A DNA stretch of 21,854 nucleotides from the IMG/VR virus record IMGVR_UViG_3300006793_000331, positions 1-21,854 of that record. One strand, written 5' to 3'. Position 1 is the first letter of the stretch; every line of letters starts with the position of its first letter. This stretch comes from a virus. Positions 3,016-21,854 of the stretch are shown here, one piece after another. The translations under genes were made by a program, and so were the position numbers. Under the pieces are notes generated by a model, which saw only the letters and a list, made by a program, of their open reading frames with translations, did no database searches and was not told where the DNA came from.

Positions 3016-4089
3016 ATGGAACTTAAAGTAAAAGAAGTAAAAGTAGGGGAAGAAAAGTCAGTACAAGAGGTAGAACAAGAGCTTTTAGATAAGCATGAAG
3101 AAGGTCTTAATGATGACCGATCTAAAGCTGAAGAGCCTAAAGCTGAAGAGCCTAAAGCTGAATTAAACGAGGAAGATGTTCTTTCGTATATTGGTAAAAG
3201 ATATAATAAAGAAATTAATTCATTTGATGAGTTAATGAGTCAGCGAGAAACTCAGGAAGAATTACCTGAAGATGTAGCTGCTTACTTTAAATATAAAAAA
3301 GACACAGGAAGAGGAATTCAAGACTTTGTAGAGTTACAAAAAGATTTTGATGAATCCAATCCTGATTCTTTACTTAGAGATTATTTACGTGCTACTGAGG
3401 ATGGTCTTGATGAAGAAGATATAGAAACCTTAATGGATGACTATTCTTTTGATGAAGATTTAGACGAAGAGGGTGACATAAAGAAAATTAAGTTAAAGAA
3501 GAAAAAAGCTATTGCTAAAGCAAAAGATTACTTTAAAGAAATGCAAGAGAAGTATAAGCAACCACTTGAGTCAAGGGGAATGCAATCTTCAAATGTATCT
3601 GACGAAGAAATGGAAGGCTATAAGCAATACATCGCAGATGCGAAGTCTTATGAAGAAGAGACTGCTAGAAAGAAAGAGTTTTACGACTCTAAGACGTTAG
3701 AAGTATTTACGCCTGAGTTCAAAGGTTTTGAATTTAATGTAGGTGAAGAAACAATAACATTTTCTCCAGGTAGTTTAGATGATTTAAAAAAGAGTGCATT
3801 AAATCCAGGTAGTTGGGCAACCAAGTATTTAGATGATAGTGGTCTTTTAAAAGATTCTAAAGGTTTTCATAGGAGTGTAGCAATTGCACAGAATCCTGAA
3901 AAATTTGCTAAGTTCTTTTATGAGCAAGGCAAGGCTAATGCCACGGAAGATGTAATGCGTAAGACAAAAAATATTAATATGTCGGAACGTAGATCGCCTG
4001 AAGTGACAAGCAAGGGAGGAACACAGTTTAAGTCTTTAAACACAGATAGTGGAAGAGGACTTAAAATTAAGAGTATTAAAAGAAAATAA
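3016..4089 (+). CDS. Probable capsid scaffold/assembly protein
   Basis: This 357-residue, very acidic, Lys/Glu-rich, mostly helical protein lies between portal and major capsid protein, the usual position of a scaffold. Scaffolds chaperone capsid subunit assembly and then leave or are degraded. Residues 1-60 are low complexity and contain KAEEP twice plus a partial third copy (from residue 37). Residues about 115-170 hold an Asp/Glu-rich run followed by a Lys-rich helix. A more ordered segment follows at about 235-300 (EFKGFEFNVGEETITFSPG). The C terminus is basic (KIKSIKRK), as in scaffolds whose C-terminal tail binds the capsid protein. No serine-protease motif is recognisable, so I do not call it a scaffold-protease fusion. 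The start at 3016 is the first ATG after the promoter-like element and has an AT-rich leader. The role is inferred mainly from position and composition; a head-completion role is an alternative. Confidence 0.5.
   Translation: MELKVKEVKVGEEKSVQEVEQELLDKHEEGLNDDRSKAEEPKAEEPKAELNEEDVLSYIGKRYNKEINSFDELMSQRETQEELPEDVAAYFKYKKDTGRGIQDFVELQKDFDESNPDSLLRDYLRATEDGLDEEDIETLMDDYSFDEDLDEEGDIKKIKLKKKKAIAKAKDYFKEMQEKYKQPLESRGMQSSNVSDEEMEGYKQYIADAKSYEEETARKKEFYDSKTLEVFTPEFKGFEFNVGEETITFSPGSLDDLKKSALNPGSWATKYLDDSGLLKDSKGFHRSVAIAQNPEKFAKFFYEQGKANATEDVMRKTKNINMSERRSPEVTSKGGTQFKSLNTDSGRGLKIKSIKRK
3124..3162 (+). repeat. 15-bp tandem repeat (2.6 copies) in scaffold gene
   Basis: The unit AAAGCTGAAGAGCCT occurs at 3124-3138 and 3139-3153 and is followed by its first nine bases at 3154-3162. 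It encodes KAEEP-KAEEP-KAE in the disordered acidic N-terminal region. The copies are identical, which suggests recent slippage or recombination. Confidence 0.9.
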
Positions 4090-14566: not shown

Positions 14567-15604
14567 ATGCCAACAGAAGCAGTAGCAGGAGGTGGTGCAG
14601 CAGCAGGAGGAGCAATGGGCGTTTTAGGAGTAGCTGGATTAGGATTAAGTGCCTTCGGTATGGGAATGTCTTTTCTTCAAGCAGGTGCGCAACGTAGGGC
14701 TGCAGAAAAAGCAGACCGTGAGGCTGAAAGGTCAATGGCTGCAGCTAGAAAAAAATTAGAAGTAAACTACTTAGATGCCTTAGCTGTAAACAAGCTACCA
14801 TACGAATTAGAACGTGAGGCTTTACTGGTTGCAGGGGCGCAAGGTATTGACGCAGCAAGAGAGTCTGAACGAGGTGCTGCAGCAGGTGTTGGTCGAACAC
14901 AACTAGCACAACAAAAAGGTCAGCAAGGAATTAGGAAAGAGCAAAGCATAGAGTTAACTGCATTAGATAGGGCAGCGGCAGCAGAAGAATCAAGGCTTCG
15001 TGATGTTGGTGTTCAGTTAGATTTAGGTGAAGTTGCAGGGGCACAAATGGCATCATCAGATGCTAGTCAGGCGGCAGCAGCAGCACAGACACAAGGATTT
15101 CAACAGTTAGCTGCTTTTGGTGCACAGGCTTTAGAGGCAGCACCATTGTTTTCAAAGAGCGCAGGAGTTCGAGCATCCAACAAGGCATATAGACAGGCTA
15201 ATAGAGTAGGTAAAGAGGCTTTTATGAAAGCTAATCCAAATGCTGGTTTTTTGGGTATTGGAACAGGATATAGAAAAGCAGCAGGAAATTTAGGTAGACA
15301 GGGAGTTTTAAATCAATCAACATTTGATCAGATTACAAAAAATAATCCAAATTTTATAAATCAATTCAATAAAGCTCAAGGAAAGCAGGGAGTTCAATTT
15401 AATCAAGATTTGTTTTTAGCTAACCCACAAGGCTTTATAGGTAGAGGTAGTGTACAACAACAGGCTTTATTTAATAATGCTTTAACTGGAGTTCAAATGA
15501 GTCCTATAGAAGATGAAGATCAGTTTGTAGTTGAGGAACAAGATTTATCAAATACTGACCCAATGGCTTTATTAGGATACCTAAGTAATAAAAGAAAAAT
15601 GTAA
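14567..15604 (+). CDS. Putative small ejection (internal virion) protein, T7 gp14-like role
   Basis: This is a 345-residue protein. Residues 4-38 are Gly/Ala-rich and hydrophobic (AVAGGGAAAGGAMGVLG, then VAGLGLSAFGMGMSFL), like a membrane-inserting glycine-zipper segment. Residues 40-180 are Ala-rich amphipathic helices with heptad-like spacing (AEKADREAERSMAAARKK), followed by AAAAAQTQGFQQLAAFGAQAL and a Gly/Asn-rich second half that ends in an acidic stretch (EDEDQFVVEEQ). There is no enzyme motif. Small ejection proteins such as T7 gp14 and P22 gp7 are helical, membrane-active, carried in the head and inserted into the host envelope to open a path for DNA. This one starts the three-gene block of a small, a medium and a giant protein, and the next gene begins right after its stop. 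The role is inferred from composition and position. Confidence 0.55.
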   Translation: MPTEAVAGGGAAAGGAMGVLGVAGLGLSAFGMGMSFLQAGAQRRAAEKADREAERSMAAARKKLEVNYLDALAVNKLPYELEREALLVAGAQGIDAARESERGAAAGVGRTQLAQQKGQQGIRKEQSIELTALDRAAAAEESRLRDVGVQLDLGEVAGAQMASSDASQAAAAAQTQGFQQLAAFGAQALEAAPLFSKSAGVRASNKAYRQANRVGKEAFMKANPNAGFLGIGTGYRKAAGNLGRQGVLNQSTFDQITKNNPNFINQFNKAQGKQGVQFNQDLFLANPQGFIGRGSVQQQALFNNALTGVQMSPIEDEDQFVVEEQDLSNTDPMALLGYLSNKRKM

Positions 15605-17458
15605 ATGGCAACATATTATAAGTACGCAGAAAGGGATGCTAGCAATCAGGTAAACTGGTCGGAGATTACCTCCAACATGGTAAACTCTCTCAAAGAGGTT
15701 GAGGCTATTCGAGAGTCTAAGAGGCAGGCTATAAATGATGCTACTGCAGAGTTAGGCACAACTCTTTCAGAAGCTCCACAGGGAGACCATAGGGGCTTAA
15801 ATGAGTTTGCTATGACGTATGCTAACAACGCACAACAGATGCGTTTAATGCAAGACCAACTACTAAAATCAGGGCAGTTAAAACTAAAGGACTATAACAT
15901 TGGCCGTGCTAACCTTACTCAAGGGACTACGCAACTTTTTAATTTAGGAAAAAAATATCAAGCCGTTTACAAGGAGAAAATGGATAGGTTTCAGAATGGG
16001 GAGTCTGGTATGCAAGAGCAATTTCAAATGGGTGAGCTTGAAGCCTTTGCAAACTTTTCTAATCACGAGGCTTATATTAATCCTACAAACGGCCAAGTAA
16101 GTGTGGGTAAATTAATAACCGAAGAAAGAGATGGAAAGACTGTTACAACTATGGATAGAACTCCTGGTAGTTTTACCACAGTTCAGGAACTTAATTTTTC
16201 TGTTGCACAAAAAGTAGACAAGTATAAGCTTGATGGTTTAGATGCAGACATAGATAGGTTGGCTACAAAATACGTAAAAACATTTGGGCCAAATTTTTCT
16301 ATCGATGACGTTAGGCAGTTACCTGAGTTTAAGAAGATGAAGCAGGACATGATAAATGCACAAATGGCTACAGGAAACCAGAATGTGGGAAGCATGTTGG
16401 CTGATTACCTTAGGGTTGCACCTAATGGAGATGCATATGGATACACAAGAGACCCTAACAAGCAAGACGAAAACACCATACTATTAGTTGCTGACCCTAA
16501 TCAACCAGGCTCAGGTAAGCTTGTACCAGACTTTAGTAGTGAGATTGGAAAGAAGCAATATAAAGAAGCGGAAGGTTTTATTGATAGAGAAATTGAAAAG
16601 CAACTAAGTCGTACAGAAACTAAAAAAGAACCTAGGCCACCAAGAGAAAAAAGTCCATCTAAAATACTTGAAGAGCAACAAGGAAGTGTTGTTGACTTAT
16701 GGAACTCGTTGTATAGTGCAAAAGACACTGCTAAAAGAAATAGTATTGTTAGTTCTATTATTTCTAGTCCATACAATAAACAAGCTAAAAATATGTTAAA
16801 AAACATAACCTTTGTTTCAAGAAATATAGGTACAAAAGATAAGCCTGTAATGCAAGACTTTATGGAGGTTAGTTATGAAAACCCTGCAGGAAATAGAACT
16901 GGAAATAAAGCTATTCCTATAACTGACAGCTATGTAGATTGGGCAGCAGCAGGTGTAGAGCTTCATGGAGTTCAAGATAAAGCTAAGAGAGAAAAAGGAT
17001 TAAGTACAAAATCAATATTTGGTGGTGGAAAAGATAATTCATTTGAAGGGATAACTGGAGGAAGAGGTGAGGAAATAGAAAGTAATGTAACAAAAGTTAG
17101 GAATCAGGTAAGAGGCATGATAGGAAAAAACACATTTAAAGATATGAGTGATAACGATGTGGCTATATTCCTGCAGTCTAAACTTGGTGCTCTAGGGTTT
17201 ACTTTTAGACCAGATAATTCTCCATTTAATGATGTATTAGTTAAATATCCTGGAGGTGGGGATGACGAGTATGTTTTAGAGGTAGGGTCTCGTGGTAGTG
17301 TAGAAAAAACAAAAAACTTTTTAGATTTTATTCTTCCGTTAATATCAAACGAAGCAGCAGATGTATTTATAGAGTCAGGTGTTGATATATCTGGAGGTGT
17401 AATAGGAGGATCAAAAGAAACAGAAACAAACAATAAGAAGAAATTACCAGGAAGTTAA
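15605..17458 (+). CDS. Putative middle ejection (internal virion) protein, T7 gp15 / P22 gp20-like role
   Basis: This 617-residue protein starts immediately after the previous stop. Residues 1-130 are helical and charged (YYKYAERDASNQVNWSEI, then RESKRQAINDATAELG, then SEAPQGDHRGLNEFA), a beginning I associate with internal virion proteins in marine Bacteroidota phages. A mixed segment follows at about 180-320, then a Pro/Lys-rich flexible linker near 335-352 (RTETKKEPRPPREKSP), then a further mixed domain at about 360-617 with few hydrophobic runs. There is no membrane helix, signal peptide, or recognisable lysozyme, amidase or transglycosylase motif. It sits between the small membrane-active-looking protein and the giant one and is translationally linked to both (one base separates it from the next ATG). 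I infer that it is carried in the virion and forms part of a periplasmic conduit. A tail assembly role cannot be excluded. Confidence 0.52.
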   Translation: MATYYKYAERDASNQVNWSEITSNMVNSLKEVEAIRESKRQAINDATAELGTTLSEAPQGDHRGLNEFAMTYANNAQQMRLMQDQLLKSGQLKLKDYNIGRANLTQGTTQLFNLGKKYQAVYKEKMDRFQNGESGMQEQFQMGELEAFANFSNHEAYINPTNGQVSVGKLITEERDGKTVTTMDRTPGSFTTVQELNFSVAQKVDKYKLDGLDADIDRLATKYVKTFGPNFSIDDVRQLPEFKKMKQDMINAQMATGNQNVGSMLADYLRVAPNGDAYGYTRDPNKQDENTILLVADPNQPGSGKLVPDFSSEIGKKQYKEAEGFIDREIEKQLSRTETKKEPRPPREKSPSKILEEQQGSVVDLWNSLYSAKDTAKRNSIVSSIISSPYNKQAKNMLKNITFVSRNIGTKDKPVMQDFMEVSYENPAGNRTGNKAIPITDSYVDWAAAGVELHGVQDKAKREKGLSTKSIFGGGKDNSFEGITGGRGEEIESNVTKVRNQVRGMIGKNTFKDMSDNDVAIFLQSKLGALGFTFRPDNSPFNDVLVKYPGGGDDEYVLEVGSRGSVEKTKNFLDFILPLISNEAADVFIESGVDISGGVIGGSKETETNNKKKLPGS

Positions 17459-17459
17459 T

Positions 17460-20400
17460 ATGAACGAAGAAGCTATTTTATTACTGTATAACGACTTAAA
17501 AGAAACTTATGATGTTGGGTCTATAGATGATTTTAAAAATTATCTAATGGATGATAATAAGAAACAAATGTTCTTTGATCAGGTTATTAAACCAACATAT
17601 AATGTTGATGATATAGAAACTTTTAACGAAGTTTATGGATTAAAAAAAAAAGACGAATCTACTTTTGTTGCTCCAAAAAAAGATGTGGAATTGGTTACGG
17701 AAGACACTTCTTTGGATACACAAGAAACTCCTGAAACTACAGAGTACCAACCACAAAATATACTTGAGCCTATAGAAAGCGAGGATTCAGAATTTGAAGC
17801 ATCCTTAAAGACTTCTGTTACTCCAGAAATGATAGCTGACGTAGAAGAATTTGTAGTTCCAGAAATGCAATACAAGTTTGGTAAGTATGGCTTTGACTTT
17901 GAGGAAGCAAATATTTTGGGTGATGAAATGCGTGTCAAAGTTCGTGGCACGAATAAAGAATTAAAAGTTCCGTTACATAGACTTTTTTTTAAGGAAACTA
18001 CTTCAAAAGAATTAGAAAAATTTCTTAGAGAAAATAAAAGAAAGGAAAGCGAGATACTAAAACAAAGTCAAGCTATAGTACAAAACCAAAGAATTATTCA
18101 GACTGATGAAGAATTAAATGCTACCATAAAATTATTTAATAAAGAATCTGAACGATTTGTCTATGAGGCTAATGAGTATGCTAAATCTAAAGCAAAACTA
18201 GACAGTATATACGACTCTAATTTTTCTAATGTTAGCAAGGAGCTTATAAAAAATAATCCTGTATTAAAAGCAAACTACGATGAATGGCTAAAAGAGTCTA
18301 AACAACTAGATGCAAAACTTAAAGAAATAGAGGGTAAGTCTAAAGATTTTAAATATAAAGGTGCAAAGTTAGACAAGATTGCAGGAGATTACACTGCAAT
18401 GAAAGCAGAACAAGGCACGTGGTGGTCAGGTTTTTGGAATGAAATGGCGGGTGGTTTAGGACCTACGTTTACACCAATATCTTCAATTATAGACTTAGGA
18501 ACATACCTGGATGAGAAGATGATAATGGGAGATGATACTGATGCCAGTGTTCCTGTAAAAACTAGAAAAGAAGAATACAAGAAGGACATAATTAGAATAG
18601 CTAAAGAAGAGGGCTTAGCACCTGAAGGATTAAATGAAGACATGTCTCTTGATGAGGTGGTTAAAGCTCTTGGTGGGGACACCAATGATGTTAAACTTTT
18701 TTTTGATTCTATTGTCACCAAAGGGTTCTTAAATTCACCTAGTATGGCAAGAGCTAGAGCCATGAAAACAGGGTCTACAAAAGGAGGAACTCAGGAGAAA
18801 GAAGAAACAAACTTTGATATAGTTCAAGATAAACTTCTTGACATTGAAAGAAAGACTAAAAAGTATTACGAGCCAAAGGTTGACCCTAGTGACCCTGAAG
18901 GGAAAAGATTGATAAGTGCAAGAGAACTTGCCTTTACTGATGCTATGAGTGATGACCCTAAGTTTAGAAATCCATTCTCAGTTGTTGGAGCACAAAAAGA
19001 CAACTTTGGTAACGAGGGTATGGTTTCTGCAGGGCGTGATGCTTTTAATTTTTTAAAGGACAAGAGCACCACAGAACAGTGGGCAGAGGTTCAAAAGCAG
19101 GGTAATTTTTTAAAGAAAGGTTTTTTAGGATTAGGAGGTTCACTTCCTGCAATGCTAGGAACATCAACTCCTGCAGGTTGGGCGCAACGTACTGCTCAGA
19201 TGTACAACATGTCTACAGATTATGTAGACCAAGAGATGGAAAAAAATCCTATGTTTGACAAGATATCTGAGGCAGAAAAAACACTAGTAAAGATGCCTAT
19301 AGGTGTTGCTACAGCAGTATTAGAGAACGTAGGTCTTAGAAATATTATAGCACAAAAAGGATTACTAAACTCTTTAGTTTCCAAGGCTTTACGTAAGTCA
19401 AACAAGAACACAACTGCTAAGACATTCCAGGAGTTTATTCGTCAGGATGTCGAAAGTATGATTGGAAGGGGTGCCTTAGTTATAACAGGAGCAGGTTTAG
19501 CAGAGTTTGAGACTGGGTTTGCTCAAGAGATTGCAACTATTGGAATAAAGGATGTATACAATGCTAGCAAGGAGGCTAAGATGTTTGAGACTCCAGAAAC
19601 TTTTGCAACCTATATGTCACAGGTGGTTGAAGCAGGTTTAGCTGAAATGGTAGGTGGTTTTGTTATGGGTAGTATTCCTGCAGTAAGTTCTGCTGTTAGT
19701 GGTCTTGACGTTCAGAATCTAGACCCTGAAGTTTTTGAAATATTTGAGAATACGATACAAGAACCTACATTAAAAAGTGCATACATATCAGGATTAAAAA
19801 ACAGAATAGCTGACCCATCTAATCAATTAGATGCTAAAGAAGCTCAGAAGGAGTTAGACCTTGTAAACAAACTAGAAGGAATAATGATAGCTAATCGTGT
19901 TCCGTTTGATGAGTTTAATACTAACCAAAGAAAGGAGGCACTTCAGTTGCTTCTACAAAAAGAAACTCTAGACAACGAAATTCAAGAGGCAGATAAAGTT
20001 TTGTCTAAGCCAAAGCAAGAACTTTTAGACAGGGTTAATAAAAGACTAGAAGAGTTAACAGGGGAAAGTATTTCTACTCAGGAGGAAACTAAACTTGAGT
20101 CTGAAGGAATTACTGAGCTTGATTCAACTTTAGAAGAGGGTGATAAAACAGTAGAAGAAACAGAGATTGAAGTTGATGATGAAGTTTTAATGACACCTGA
20201 AGAAATAAAAAAGGCAATTTTTGAATCAAATGTAGCTAGAAATAAAGCAGAAAAAAAGGGTGATGAGGCTGAAGTAAGAAGACAAGTTGAAAGAGGGGAA
20301 TATCTATCCTCTTTGATTGACGAAAAAACTAGAGATAAACTAGGAATCATAAAGGATTTATATAGTAAAGATGCAGTAAAAACAAAAATAGAAGAATTAA

Positions 20401-21854
20401 AAAAAGATCCTTTTTATAACTCAAATTTTTTTACAGAACAAATAAAATTGCTTGAAGAGGTTTTAGAGGAGTACAATAAAATAGAAGCTTTAGAAGATAA
20501 AAAACAATTTGAATTAAATAATAGAAAGAAACCAGGAAACATAAAAGTTAAAGATGAAACCTCATTAACTGTAGTTCAAAAAATTGAGCAAAGAATAAAA
20601 ACTATTGCAAATATATCAGGACAAAAAAGAATATTAAACAGATTAAATATATTTAAAAATTCACCACTTCCTGAAAATTACAAAAATCTTTTAAATGCAG
20701 ATTTAGAATTAGTAAATAGCTCTATTGTTAAAGTAAAAGATATAATGGATATGTCTTTTAAACAATTTAGTGACTATACTAATAATTTAAACACCAATAG
20801 TTCTTTAGTAGACACTACTGCTATAGATAATCAGATTAAAGAGGCAAAGCAAAAGATAGAGAGCTATAAAAAGTTTGATAAAATTGCTGTAAAACCTGCT
20901 CCCAAAGCAGAAGTAAAAGTAGAAGCAGAGGTAGAGGTTACTTCTAAAGAAGAGACAGAAGTAAAAGAAGAAAGATTAAAGGACTCTCAGATACCTGTGT
21001 CAAACCAAAGGTTTACTGTTGAAGATGATAATGGAAATACTATTTTTGTAGAAATTACAACAAATCTTGATGGTAGCAGGAAAGTAATTCAAAAGATAGA
21101 AGATGGAACTATTGTAGGAGCAAACTCCAAGATAATTTCAAAAGACAATACTCTAACAAACGAAGAGTACACTTCACAACAATTTGGAGATATCAAACAA
21201 ACTGAAGATGTAGATATTAAAAATATAAGAAGTTCTAAAGTAGAATCTAGAATGTCTGACAGGCAGCGTAAAGCAGCAGGTATGGATGTAACACCTGAAG
21301 CTGAGGTTGAGGAAAAGAAAATAGATAAGGAAACTCAAGAAGAACAAGAAGATATTAAAGAGTTTTTTATAGATGAGTTGGGTGAGAGTATTTCTCCTAA
21401 CTTAAACATAAACAAAGAAGGGAAGCCTGAAAAAGTAAATAATTTAAAGCCAAGAATAATTAAAATAGCCAAGGCTAGTGCTAAGGCTATTGCTAATTTA
21501 CTTCCTAAAACAAAAATTGTTTTACACGAAAGCAAGTCAGAATACTTTAAGTATACTGGTAAAAAAGGTAGAGGTTATTATGATACTACGACAGACACCA
21601 TACATATCGATTTAACTAATGCTAAGTTAAGCACTGTACCACATGAGGTGTTTCATGCGGTGTTTTTAAATAAGTTAAAGACAGACGCAAAGGCAAGGGC
21701 GATGGCTATAAAGATGGTTGAGTCTGTTAAAAAGACCCTTCCTAAAACAAGTAAGCTTTACAAAGAAATTGATGCCTTCAGTAAGCTATATACTGGTGAA
21801 CAAGCACAGTTCCAAGAAGAAGAGTTTATTGCAGAACTTATAGGCTTGATGTCA
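17460..21854 (+). CDS. Giant ejection/cargo protein with zincin-type metallopeptidase motif (3' end outside window)
   Basis: The frame is open from ATG 17460 to the last base of the window, giving at least 1465 residues. Residues 1-65 hold two copies of T-Y-[DN]-V-x-x-I-x-x-F exactly 30 residues apart (16-25 and 46-55), ending in YGLKKKD. Residues 160-320 are helical and charged. Hydrophobic, Gly/Ala-rich stretches at about 552-580, 671-700 and 717-750 could enter membranes. Residues 860-1140 are acidic or coiled-coil-like. A Lys/Glu linker is near 1144-1170, and a small strand-rich domain follows at about 1184-1255. The visible end shows RGYYDTTTDTIHIDL followed by VPHEVFHAVF: H1395, E1396 and H1399 form HExxH. 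Glu1454-1455 or Glu1459, in EEFIAELIG, is a likely third zinc ligand. It stands in the giant (T7 gp16-like) position of an ejection set. Zincin domains are known in large phage polyvalent proteins (Iyer, Aravind and colleagues). The substrate is unknown. Confidence 0.66.
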   Translation, partial: MNEEAILLLYNDLKETYDVGSIDDFKNYLMDDNKKQMFFDQVIKPTYNVDDIETFNEVYGLKKKDESTFVAPKKDVELVTEDTSLDTQETPETTEYQPQNILEPIESEDSEFEASLKTSVTPEMIADVEEFVVPEMQYKFGKYGFDFEEANILGDEMRVKVRGTNKELKVPLHRLFFKETTSKELEKFLRENKRKESEILKQSQAIVQNQRIIQTDEELNATIKLFNKESERFVYEANEYAKSKAKLDSIYDSNFSNVSKELIKNNPVLKANYDEWLKESKQLDAKLKEIEGKSKDFKYKGAKLDKIAGDYTAMKAEQGTWWSGFWNEMAGGLGPTFTPISSIIDLGTYLDEKMIMGDDTDASVPVKTRKEEYKKDIIRIAKEEGLAPEGLNEDMSLDEVVKALGGDTNDVKLFFDSIVTKGFLNSPSMARARAMKTGSTKGGTQEKEETNFDIVQDKLLDIERKTKKYYEPKVDPSDPEGKRLISARELAFTDAMSDDPKFRNPFSVVGAQKDNFGNEGMVSAGRDAFNFLKDKSTTEQWAEVQKQGNFLKKGFLGLGGSLPAMLGTSTPAGWAQRTAQMYNMSTDYVDQEMEKNPMFDKISEAEKTLVKMPIGVATAVLENVGLRNIIAQKGLLNSLVSKALRKSNKNTTAKTFQEFIRQDVESMIGRGALVITGAGLAEFETGFAQEIATIGIKDVYNASKEAKMFETPETFATYMSQVVEAGLAEMVGGFVMGSIPAVSSAVSGLDVQNLDPEVFEIFENTIQEPTLKSAYISGLKNRIADPSNQLDAKEAQKELDLVNKLEGIMIANRVPFDEFNTNQRKEALQLLLQKETLDNEIQEADKVLSKPKQELLDRVNKRLEELTGESISTQEETKLESEGITELDSTLEEGDKTVEETEIEVDDEVLMTPEEIKKAIFESNVARNKAEKKGDEAEVRRQVERGEYLSSLIDEKTRDKLGIIKDLYSKDAVKTKIEELKKDPFYNSNFFTEQIKLLEEVLEEYNKIEALEDKKQFELNNRKKPGNIKVKDETSLTVVQKIEQRIKTIANISGQKRILNRLNIFKNSPLPENYKNLLNADLELVNSSIVKVKDIMDMSFKQFSDYTNNLNTNSSLVDTTAIDNQIKEAKQKIESYKKFDKIAVKPAPKAEVKVEAEVEVTSKEETEVKEERLKDSQIPVSNQRFTVEDDNGNTIFVEITTNLDGSRKVIQKIEDGTIVGANSKIISKDNTLTNEEYTSQQFGDIKQTEDVDIKNIRSSKVESRMSDRQRKAAGMDVTPEAEVEEKKIDKETQEEQEDIKEFFIDELGESISPNLNINKEGKPEKVNNLKPRIIKIAKASAKAIANLLPKTKIVLHESKSEYFKYTGKKGRGYYDTTTDTIHIDLTNAKLSTVPHEVFHAVFLNKLKTDAKARAMAIKMVESVKKTLPKTSKLYKEIDAFSKLYTGEQAQFQEEEFIAELIGLMS
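21627..21845 (+). other. Zincin metallopeptidase core (HEVFH plus downstream Glu)
   Basis: This segment encodes the strand and helix carrying H1395-E1396-V-F-H1399 and, about 55 residues later, EEFIAELIG. In gluzincin-like enzymes the two His and a downstream Glu bind zinc and the Glu of HExxH is the catalytic base. The preceding GYYD...TIHIDL edge strand is the usual companion of this helix in phage polyvalent-protein zincins. The domain may continue beyond the window. Confidence 0.72.

What the first reader, a model, noticed from the sequence alone, without database searches (positions are those of the whole stretch)
21540..21854. Metallopeptidase domain at the visible end of a giant ejection-type protein
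Seen: HEVFH at residues 1395-1399, a preceding GYYD/TIHIDL strand, and EEFIAEL about 55 residues later, all in one open frame with the hydrophobic giant protein. Known: T7 gp16 carries a transglycosylase to open peptidoglycan; phage polyvalent proteins often carry zincin domains. Inference: this phage may use a peptidase, cutting peptidoglycan cross-links, envelope proteins or its own cargo, at the ejection step or just after entry.
Basis: partly seen in the sequence, partly recalled or inferred. Interest (0 to 1): 0.75.

Follow-up and report, generated by a model that had tools for sequence, protein, structure and literature searches.

The report
Phage cargo polyprotein with built-in peptidase
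The sequence ends inside a zinc-peptidase domain of a giant phage protein; in related phages this domain sits just before a swappable set of effector domains bounded by a short repeated motif that changes together with the peptidase, which suggests the protein is cut into separate tools by its own enzyme.

Summary
HEVFH (aa 1395-1399) and EEFIAEL (aa 1454) lie in one open frame of a giant protein that runs off the window. Relatives supply the missing part (L002, zincin 89% identical; 4,082 aa). H-E-x-x-H and E-E-x-x-x-E are invariant in about 70 distinct homologues. The AlphaFold model has a zincin layout, and the nearest solved folds are zincins (IrrE/PprI, lethal factor). Profile comparison ties the domain to the HExxH domain (C1) of coliphage N4's ejected virion RNA polymerase (96%). 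Downstream lies a cassette region that recombines (ART-PolyVal, GNAT, methyltransferase-like, LPD23), then a conserved C-terminal block. Junctions carry a short motif, R-[EQ]-[QS]-[KR]: 73 sites against 2.8 expected. One zincin clade has E-K-x-Q at its junctions instead. Three cargo modules occur behind both zincin classes, each time with the motif of its own protein. Giants lacking zincin, cargo and motif also exist. Best reading: the zincin cuts its own giant protein at these sites and frees the cargo, as first suggested in general for polyvalent proteins (PMC5512222). Candidate cut sites and their co-variation with the peptidase appear new. Cleavage, its timing and zinc binding are inferred, not shown. 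A peptidoglycan role is not supported.

The parts
17460..21854 (+). giant protein gene, 3' end beyond the window (1,465 codons visible; the close relative L002 has 4,082)
21426..21854 (+). zincin-type metallopeptidase domain (residues 1323-1465), cut off by the window end inside or just after the helix of the third ligand
   Evidence: homology to L002 and alignments A1/A4; AlphaFold layout beta-alpha-beta-beta-alpha(HExxH)-alpha-alpha-alpha(EExxxEL)
21597..21614 (+). TIHIDL, edge strand before the catalytic helix; the His is conserved in 67 of 69 homologues
21642..21656 (+). HEVFH, zinc-binding/catalytic motif
   Evidence: H, E, H invariant 69/69
21819..21839 (+). EEFIAEL, helix that should carry the third (Glu) ligand
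   Evidence: E, E, E invariant 68/68
17460..19870 (+). N-terminal part shared by the family (residues 1 to about 804), with two moderately hydrophobic stretches; weak profile similarity to virion protein gp123 of Cellulophaga phage phi18:3 and its kin
20100..21425 (+). charged, poorly conserved linker region before the zincin
   Evidence: conservation profile of relatives; translation
21261..21272 (+). RQRK at residue 1268 in the linker: resembles the junction motif of relatives; possible upstream site, may be chance
14567..15604 (+). 345-aa virion protein gene; position of the smallest ejection protein in T7/N4-type triads
   Evidence: phrog_13764; syntenic gene found in virions of phi18:3
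15605..17458 (+). 617-aa gene; position of the middle ejection protein of the triad
   Evidence: phrog_35506; syntenic order in relatives

Best explanation
The domain is a zincin metallopeptidase built into a giant virion protein of a Bacteroidota-type podovirus, a protein of the N4 gp50 / polyvalent kind that is most likely ejected with the DNA. Its main substrate is most likely the giant protein itself. It recognises a short motif (R-[EQ]-[QS]-[KR] in most lineages, E-K-x-Q in one clade) that stands 3-37 residues after the zincin, between cargo domains, and twice around the start of the C-terminal block. Cutting there would free exchangeable effector domains (ADP-ribosyltransferase, acetyltransferase, methyltransferase-like and unnamed ones) and part the N-terminal membrane-side portion from the C-terminal block. 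Shown by computation: zincin family, invariant catalytic residues, cassette exchange next to the zincin, repeated junction motif selected at protein level, motif class following zincin clade. Inferred: zinc binding, cleavage at the motif, cis action, ejection, and that the window's own unseen 3' part is like that of L002. Timing is open; I lean to during or after ejection, because N4 gp50 is packaged uncut.
For: H/E/H and E/E/E invariant while the two x residues vary (HEVFH, HEIFH, HEAFH, HEVMH, HELFH, HEVTH ...). Model pLDDT 88, pTM 0.84; PDB hits are zincins: IrrE/PprI probability 0.97, lethal factor 0.95. Motif in the zincin-to-C-block region: 73 sites, 47 distinct contexts, against 2.8 by shuffling; N part 9 vs 3.8, C block 6 vs 6.8; unbiased 4-mer ranking puts RQQK, GREQ, REQK, GRQQ on top. 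Other ORFs 0.08 per 1,000 aa; codon usage in the motif equals background, so it is not a DNA site. Sites cluster after the zincin and at the C-block start. Seven proteins that form one zincin clade (support 99, one change) have EKxQ at all junctions instead. Junctions of one protein agree with each other: 0.82 against 0.52 shuffled, 0 of 2,000. Three homologous first-cargo modules occur behind both zincin classes, each with the motif of its own protein. L013 and L014: 98% DNA identity up to the zincin end, none over the cargo, 97% after it. Full-length giants L076-L078 lack zincin, cargo and motif together. The general idea of processing by such peptidases was proposed in PMC5512222.
Against: No cleavage was observed. 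N4 gp50, which has a homologous zincin, is packaged uncut (PMC5512222) and the zincin's activity is unknown. The Flavobacterium elemo phages carry the zincin but only one motif copy; types L021/L023 have none. The zincin is kept even where the cargo is nearly absent (19-70 aa in L053, L067, L069), though L053 and L069 still have sites. Class B arose once, so the co-variation is one evolutionary switch, at several sites. The motif was first noticed by eye in a few loci. The window itself ends before any junction.
Confidence: 0.6

Rival explanations
1. The zincin is itself an effector: after entry it cuts host proteins (for example defence or regulatory proteins), and the junction motif has another use.
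For: Nearest folds IrrE/PprI and lethal factor cut other proteins. Proposed as an alternative in PMC5512222. The zincin persists when the cargo is almost absent.
Against: A host-directed effector would be expected to be swapped like the cargo, yet it is the most conserved block and its clade predicts the motif of the junctions.
Confidence: 0.13
2. The junction motifs are cut by another protease (host or phage), and the zincin does something else.
For: Basic motifs are typical sites of many proteases; motif class also tracks phage lineage, since class B is a single clade.
Against: No motif in zincin-less full-length giants of the same family (L076: none; L077/L078: one, in the N part). The motif changes with the zincin clade while the cargo module stays the same.
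Confidence: 0.12
3. The motifs are not cut: they are linker signals for unfolding, threading through the tail or binding a partner, or exchange-tolerant joints; the zincin is structural.
For: N4 gp50 passes the tail as beads on a string with flexible linkers and its C1 domain is part of a larger C-terminal body (PMC12633501).
Against: Strict catalytic residues; absence of the motif from the linkers upstream of the zincin.
Confidence: 0.1
4. Cell-wall or envelope peptidase that opens the path for DNA, like the transglycosylase of T7 gp16.
For: Position in an ejection-type protein.
Against: Relatives encode separate M15 peptidase, carboxypeptidase or endolysin genes; phi38:1, phi18:3 and Panino giants have no HExxH at all; HExxH zincins are protein peptidases (established knowledge).
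Confidence: 0.03

Closest known systems
Escherichia phage N4 virion RNA polymerase gp50, domain C1 (HExxH, residues 2124-2375; PMC12633501, PMC5512222)
   Same: Homologous zincin (profile-profile probability 96%, E 2.5e-9; reversed and shuffled controls at most 3.4%); giant last gene of a three-gene ejection set after portal, capsid and tail genes; N-terminal part with hydrophobic stretches, linkers, zincin, then a large C-terminal body.
   Different: No RNA polymerase domain found; exchangeable cargo between zincin and C-block; the C-block is not detectably related to N4 C2; N4 gp50 is reported to be packaged uncut.
Polyvalent proteins with MPTase domains (Iyer et al. 2017, PMC5512222)
   Same: Multidomain phage proteins in virion gene neighbourhoods with zincin, ART-PolyVal, GNAT and LPD domains; processing by the zincin was proposed there.
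   Different: The Pfam MPTase-PolyVal model does not match; a defined junction motif that co-varies with the zincin is not in the passages I read there.
Syntenic giant virion proteins of Cellulophaga phages phi18:3 (gp123, annotated from MS/MS) and phi38:1 (gp101)
   Same: Same place after the same two genes; weak profile similarity of the N part (probability 74%).
   Different: 1,691-1,935 aa, no HExxH, no cargo.
Flavobacterium elemo phages, 3,694-aa structural protein
   Same: Same zincin by sequence (E 4e-28), same gene order.
   Different: Unrelated C-terminal part and no repeated junction motif.
IrrE/PprI and related zincins
   Same: Best solved-fold matches.
   Different: Whole-domain similarity is low (TM about 0.34); no sequence match at E below 0.05.

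Membership tests
zincin metallopeptidase (gluzincin-like) | HExxH with a distal Glu ligand on a later helix, both conserved | tested here: met
   H/E/H 69/69, E/E/E 68/68; helices at 70-84 and 124-143 of the model
zincin metallopeptidase (gluzincin-like) | zincin fold | tested here: met
   model pLDDT 88; top PDB hits with probability 0.9 or more are zincins, though E-values are 0.01-0.1 and TM 0.34-0.44
zincin metallopeptidase (gluzincin-like) | ligands clustered around bound zinc; proteolysis | not testable with these tools
   no coordinates returned; no assay
Pfam PF18818 MPTase-PolyVal | match to the curated model above cut-off | tested here: not met
   0 of 17 records over cut-off; one sub-threshold match, E 0.03; none
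polyvalent protein (PMC5512222) | several unrelated catalytic domains in one polypeptide | tested here: met
   in relatives: ART-PolyVal E 1.4e-23, LPD23, GNAT, DUF7178, weak Methyltransf_23; cannot be seen in the window itself, which is cut
polyvalent protein (PMC5512222) | packaged and delivered into the host | tested here: inconclusive
   syntenic gp123 of phi18:3 annotated from virion MS/MS, but only weak similarity
N4 gp50-type ejected vRNAP | homologous HExxH domain C1 | tested here: met
N4 gp50-type ejected vRNAP | RNA polymerase domain | tested here: not met
   no RNAP family in Pfam scans of the window protein, L002 or 14 relatives; a very divergent one is not excluded
N4 gp50-type ejected vRNAP | C2-type C-terminal body | tested here: not met
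   probability 0.2%, same as reversed control
T7 gp16-type ejection protein | lytic transglycosylase domain | tested here: not met
   no lysozyme/transglycosylase family found

The most novel reading that the evidence does not exclude
A bacteriophage virion polyprotein: an ejected giant protein whose own zincin cuts it at lineage-specific sites, with swappable effector cassettes placed between sites so that any new cargo is released if it is bounded by the right four-residue tag. Peptidase and sites evolve together, as in eukaryotic RNA-virus polyproteins.
Probability: 0.5. Interest if true: 0.88.

Novelty: new variant of a known kind. Interest (0 to 1): 0.74.

Why it matters
Zincins are the commonest domain in phage polyvalent proteins, yet what they cut has been a guess since 2017 and the N4 structure leaves it open. 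Here nature offers a readable experiment: the same cargo behind two zincin types carries two different tags. That gives a concrete substrate motif to test in a tube, a rule for finding cargo borders and new injected effectors in metagenomes, and possibly a modular delivery scaffold in which cargo is released by a built-in enzyme.

Tried and rejected
Pfam, NCBIfam and PHROGs on the window protein: nothing. Single-sequence PDB search: nothing decisive. Bacterial genomes: only one phage-like contig in an Aliivibrio MAG. Peptidoglycan role: rejected for the reasons given. DNA recombination site as cause of the motif: rejected, codon use is at background. Homology of the C-block with N4 C2: rejected. 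Similar motif in the linkers upstream of the zincin: no clear enrichment. A strict link 'zincin only with large cargo': rejected, cargo can be 19-70 aa. An apparent zincin-less short giant, L043, proved to be split by a frameshift, with the zincin in the preceding ORF.

Full report
1. What is in the window. The window is a whole IMG/VR record of 21,854 bases: a late-gene operon of a podovirus with terminase end, portal, probable scaffold, capsid, tail genes, two smaller virion-type genes (345 and 617 aa) and a giant gene that runs off the end. The portal is 76% identical to that of an uncultured podovirus from Manatee Spring and 45-49% to Flavobacterium elemo phages and Maribacter phage Panino.

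2. The missing part. A search of viral contigs with the last 152 residues found 32 relatives. L002 is 89% identical over the domain and encodes 4,082 aa; other relatives encode 2,200-3,600 aa. The window stops inside or right after the helix of the third ligand.

3. It is a zincin. In an alignment of 21 relatives the catalytic residues are invariant. In a wider set that includes loci chosen by the C-terminal block, without regard to the zincin, H-E-x-x-H is kept in 69 of 69 and the three Glu of EExxxE in 68 of 68, while the x positions vary freely. Of 60 full-length proteins chosen that way 53 carry this zincin (54 with L043, which is split by a frameshift), three have another HExxH (L054, L056, L065) and three have none (L076-L078). 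The AlphaFold model from 52 sequences has pLDDT 88 and pTM 0.84; its best PDB matches are IrrE/PprI and anthrax lethal factor, both zincins. E-values are modest (0.014 and up), so the fold evidence is supportive rather than decisive alone.

4. It is related to the HExxH domain of N4 gp50. Profile comparison with 67 N4-type sequences gives probability 96.2% and E 2.5e-9 over the strand-strand-helix core; reversed, column-shuffled and unrelated profiles give at most 3.4%. A recent preprint on the N4 protein describes an N-terminal membrane part, the polymerase, the HExxH domain C1 and a large helical C2, and does not assign C1 a function (PMC12633501). The giant here has the same gene position after two smaller genes, but no polymerase was found, and its C-block is not detectably related to C2.

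5. Virion and ejection. The syntenic proteins of Cellulophaga phage phi18:3 (gp120, gp121, gp123) are annotated from MS/MS of virions. The N parts show weak profile similarity (probability 74%, reversed control 0.3%). Presence in the virion is therefore likely, not shown.

6. A cassette region follows the zincin. Conservation peaks in the zincin (0.33-0.50), falls to 0.01-0.08 in the next 20-1,170 residues, and rises again in the C-block. The variable part holds ART-PolyVal (E 1.4e-23), LPD23, GNAT, DUF7178 and weak methyltransferase matches in different relatives. L013 and L014 are 97% identical up to residue 1274, the last residue of the zincin, unlike over the cargo, and 93% identical after it; the DNA shows the same. 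So cargo is exchanged as a block next to the zincin.

7. A repeated motif marks the junctions. In the zincin-to-C-block region R-[EQ]-[QS]-[KR] occurs 73 times in 53 non-redundant proteins, in 47 distinct contexts, against 2.8 expected from shuffling; the N part and the C-block are near expectation, and other genes have 0.08 per 1,000 aa. I first saw it by eye in L002 and a few others; an unbiased ranking of 4-mers by number of distinct contexts gives RQQK 21, GREQ 16, REQK 14, GRQQ 9, next 7. Sites lie 3-37 residues after the zincin, at the C-block start, again about 70 residues later, and between cargo domains, in L002 on both sides of the GNAT domain. Codon use inside the motif is that of the genes as a whole, so selection acts on the protein.

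8. The motif follows the zincin. Proteins without it have another repeated motif in the same places: E-K-[ANSK]-Q in seven proteins, GKEQK in L119. The seven form one clade of the zincin tree (support 99, one change). Sites within a protein agree with one another more than sites dealt out among proteins (0.82 against 0.52, 0 of 2,000; class R alone 0.82 against 0.68, 0 of 2,000), although relatedness of the proteins inflates this. Most telling, three homologous cargo modules stand behind both zincin types, and each time the tag before them is that of their own zincin: for one module GRQSK, PRQRK or SREQK in one set and EKKQ or EKNQ in the other. Proteins that lack the zincin altogether pass from the N part straight to the C-block, without cargo and without the motif there.

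9. Interpretation. The simplest reading is an enzyme and its own cleavage sites. Iyer and colleagues proposed that such peptidases process polyvalent proteins or act on the host (PMC5512222); the present data favour processing and supply candidate sites. What is shown is sequence evidence only. Cleavage, cis or trans action and timing remain to be tested. N4 gp50 is reported to be packaged uncut, which argues for cutting late or for a different role in N4.

10. Limits. The window's own cargo region is unseen; the argument rests on relatives. The elemo branch and L021/L023 lack the repeated motif. The EKxQ class arose once. E-values from the profile comparisons are for single pairs, and the quick tree has many weak forks.

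Noticed in passing
L036 and L037 (Manatee Spring phage MW202828), giant protein residues 1615 and 2500: Although its portal is the closest relative (76%), its giant protein has two different HEFGH zincins in place of the HEVFH one; L054, L056 and L065 also carry HExGH types.
   Followed up: partly
window 17460-17660; L003, L007, L036 giant N-termini: The N-termini carry a short repeated unit of the form LYxxLxxxGYTKSFEEF, often twice, followed by KKK. It looks like a docking or packaging signal.
   Followed up: no
C-block start, between the two motif copies about 70 residues apart (e.g. L042 residues 1669-1740): A small domain of about 60 residues (MNxxGFxxP...ARxxxxGxGGGxYL) stands between the two junction motifs in many relatives: a possible constant mini-cargo.
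   Followed up: partly
elemo giant residues 1217-1355 and Manatee giant residues 862-1013: Linkers before the zincin share a conserved AVQKQ[AS]T...VGLQE stretch (34% identity, E 1e-8) in otherwise unrelated giants.
   Followed up: no
window 3016-4089: Sub-threshold match (E 0.021) to the crassvirus cargo protein 1 domain in the scaffold-like protein next to the portal.
   Followed up: no
L123 (contig binned in an Aliivibrio MAG): A phage contig with the same 310/620/2,749-aa gene triad lies in a metagenome-assembled bacterial genome.
   Followed up: partly
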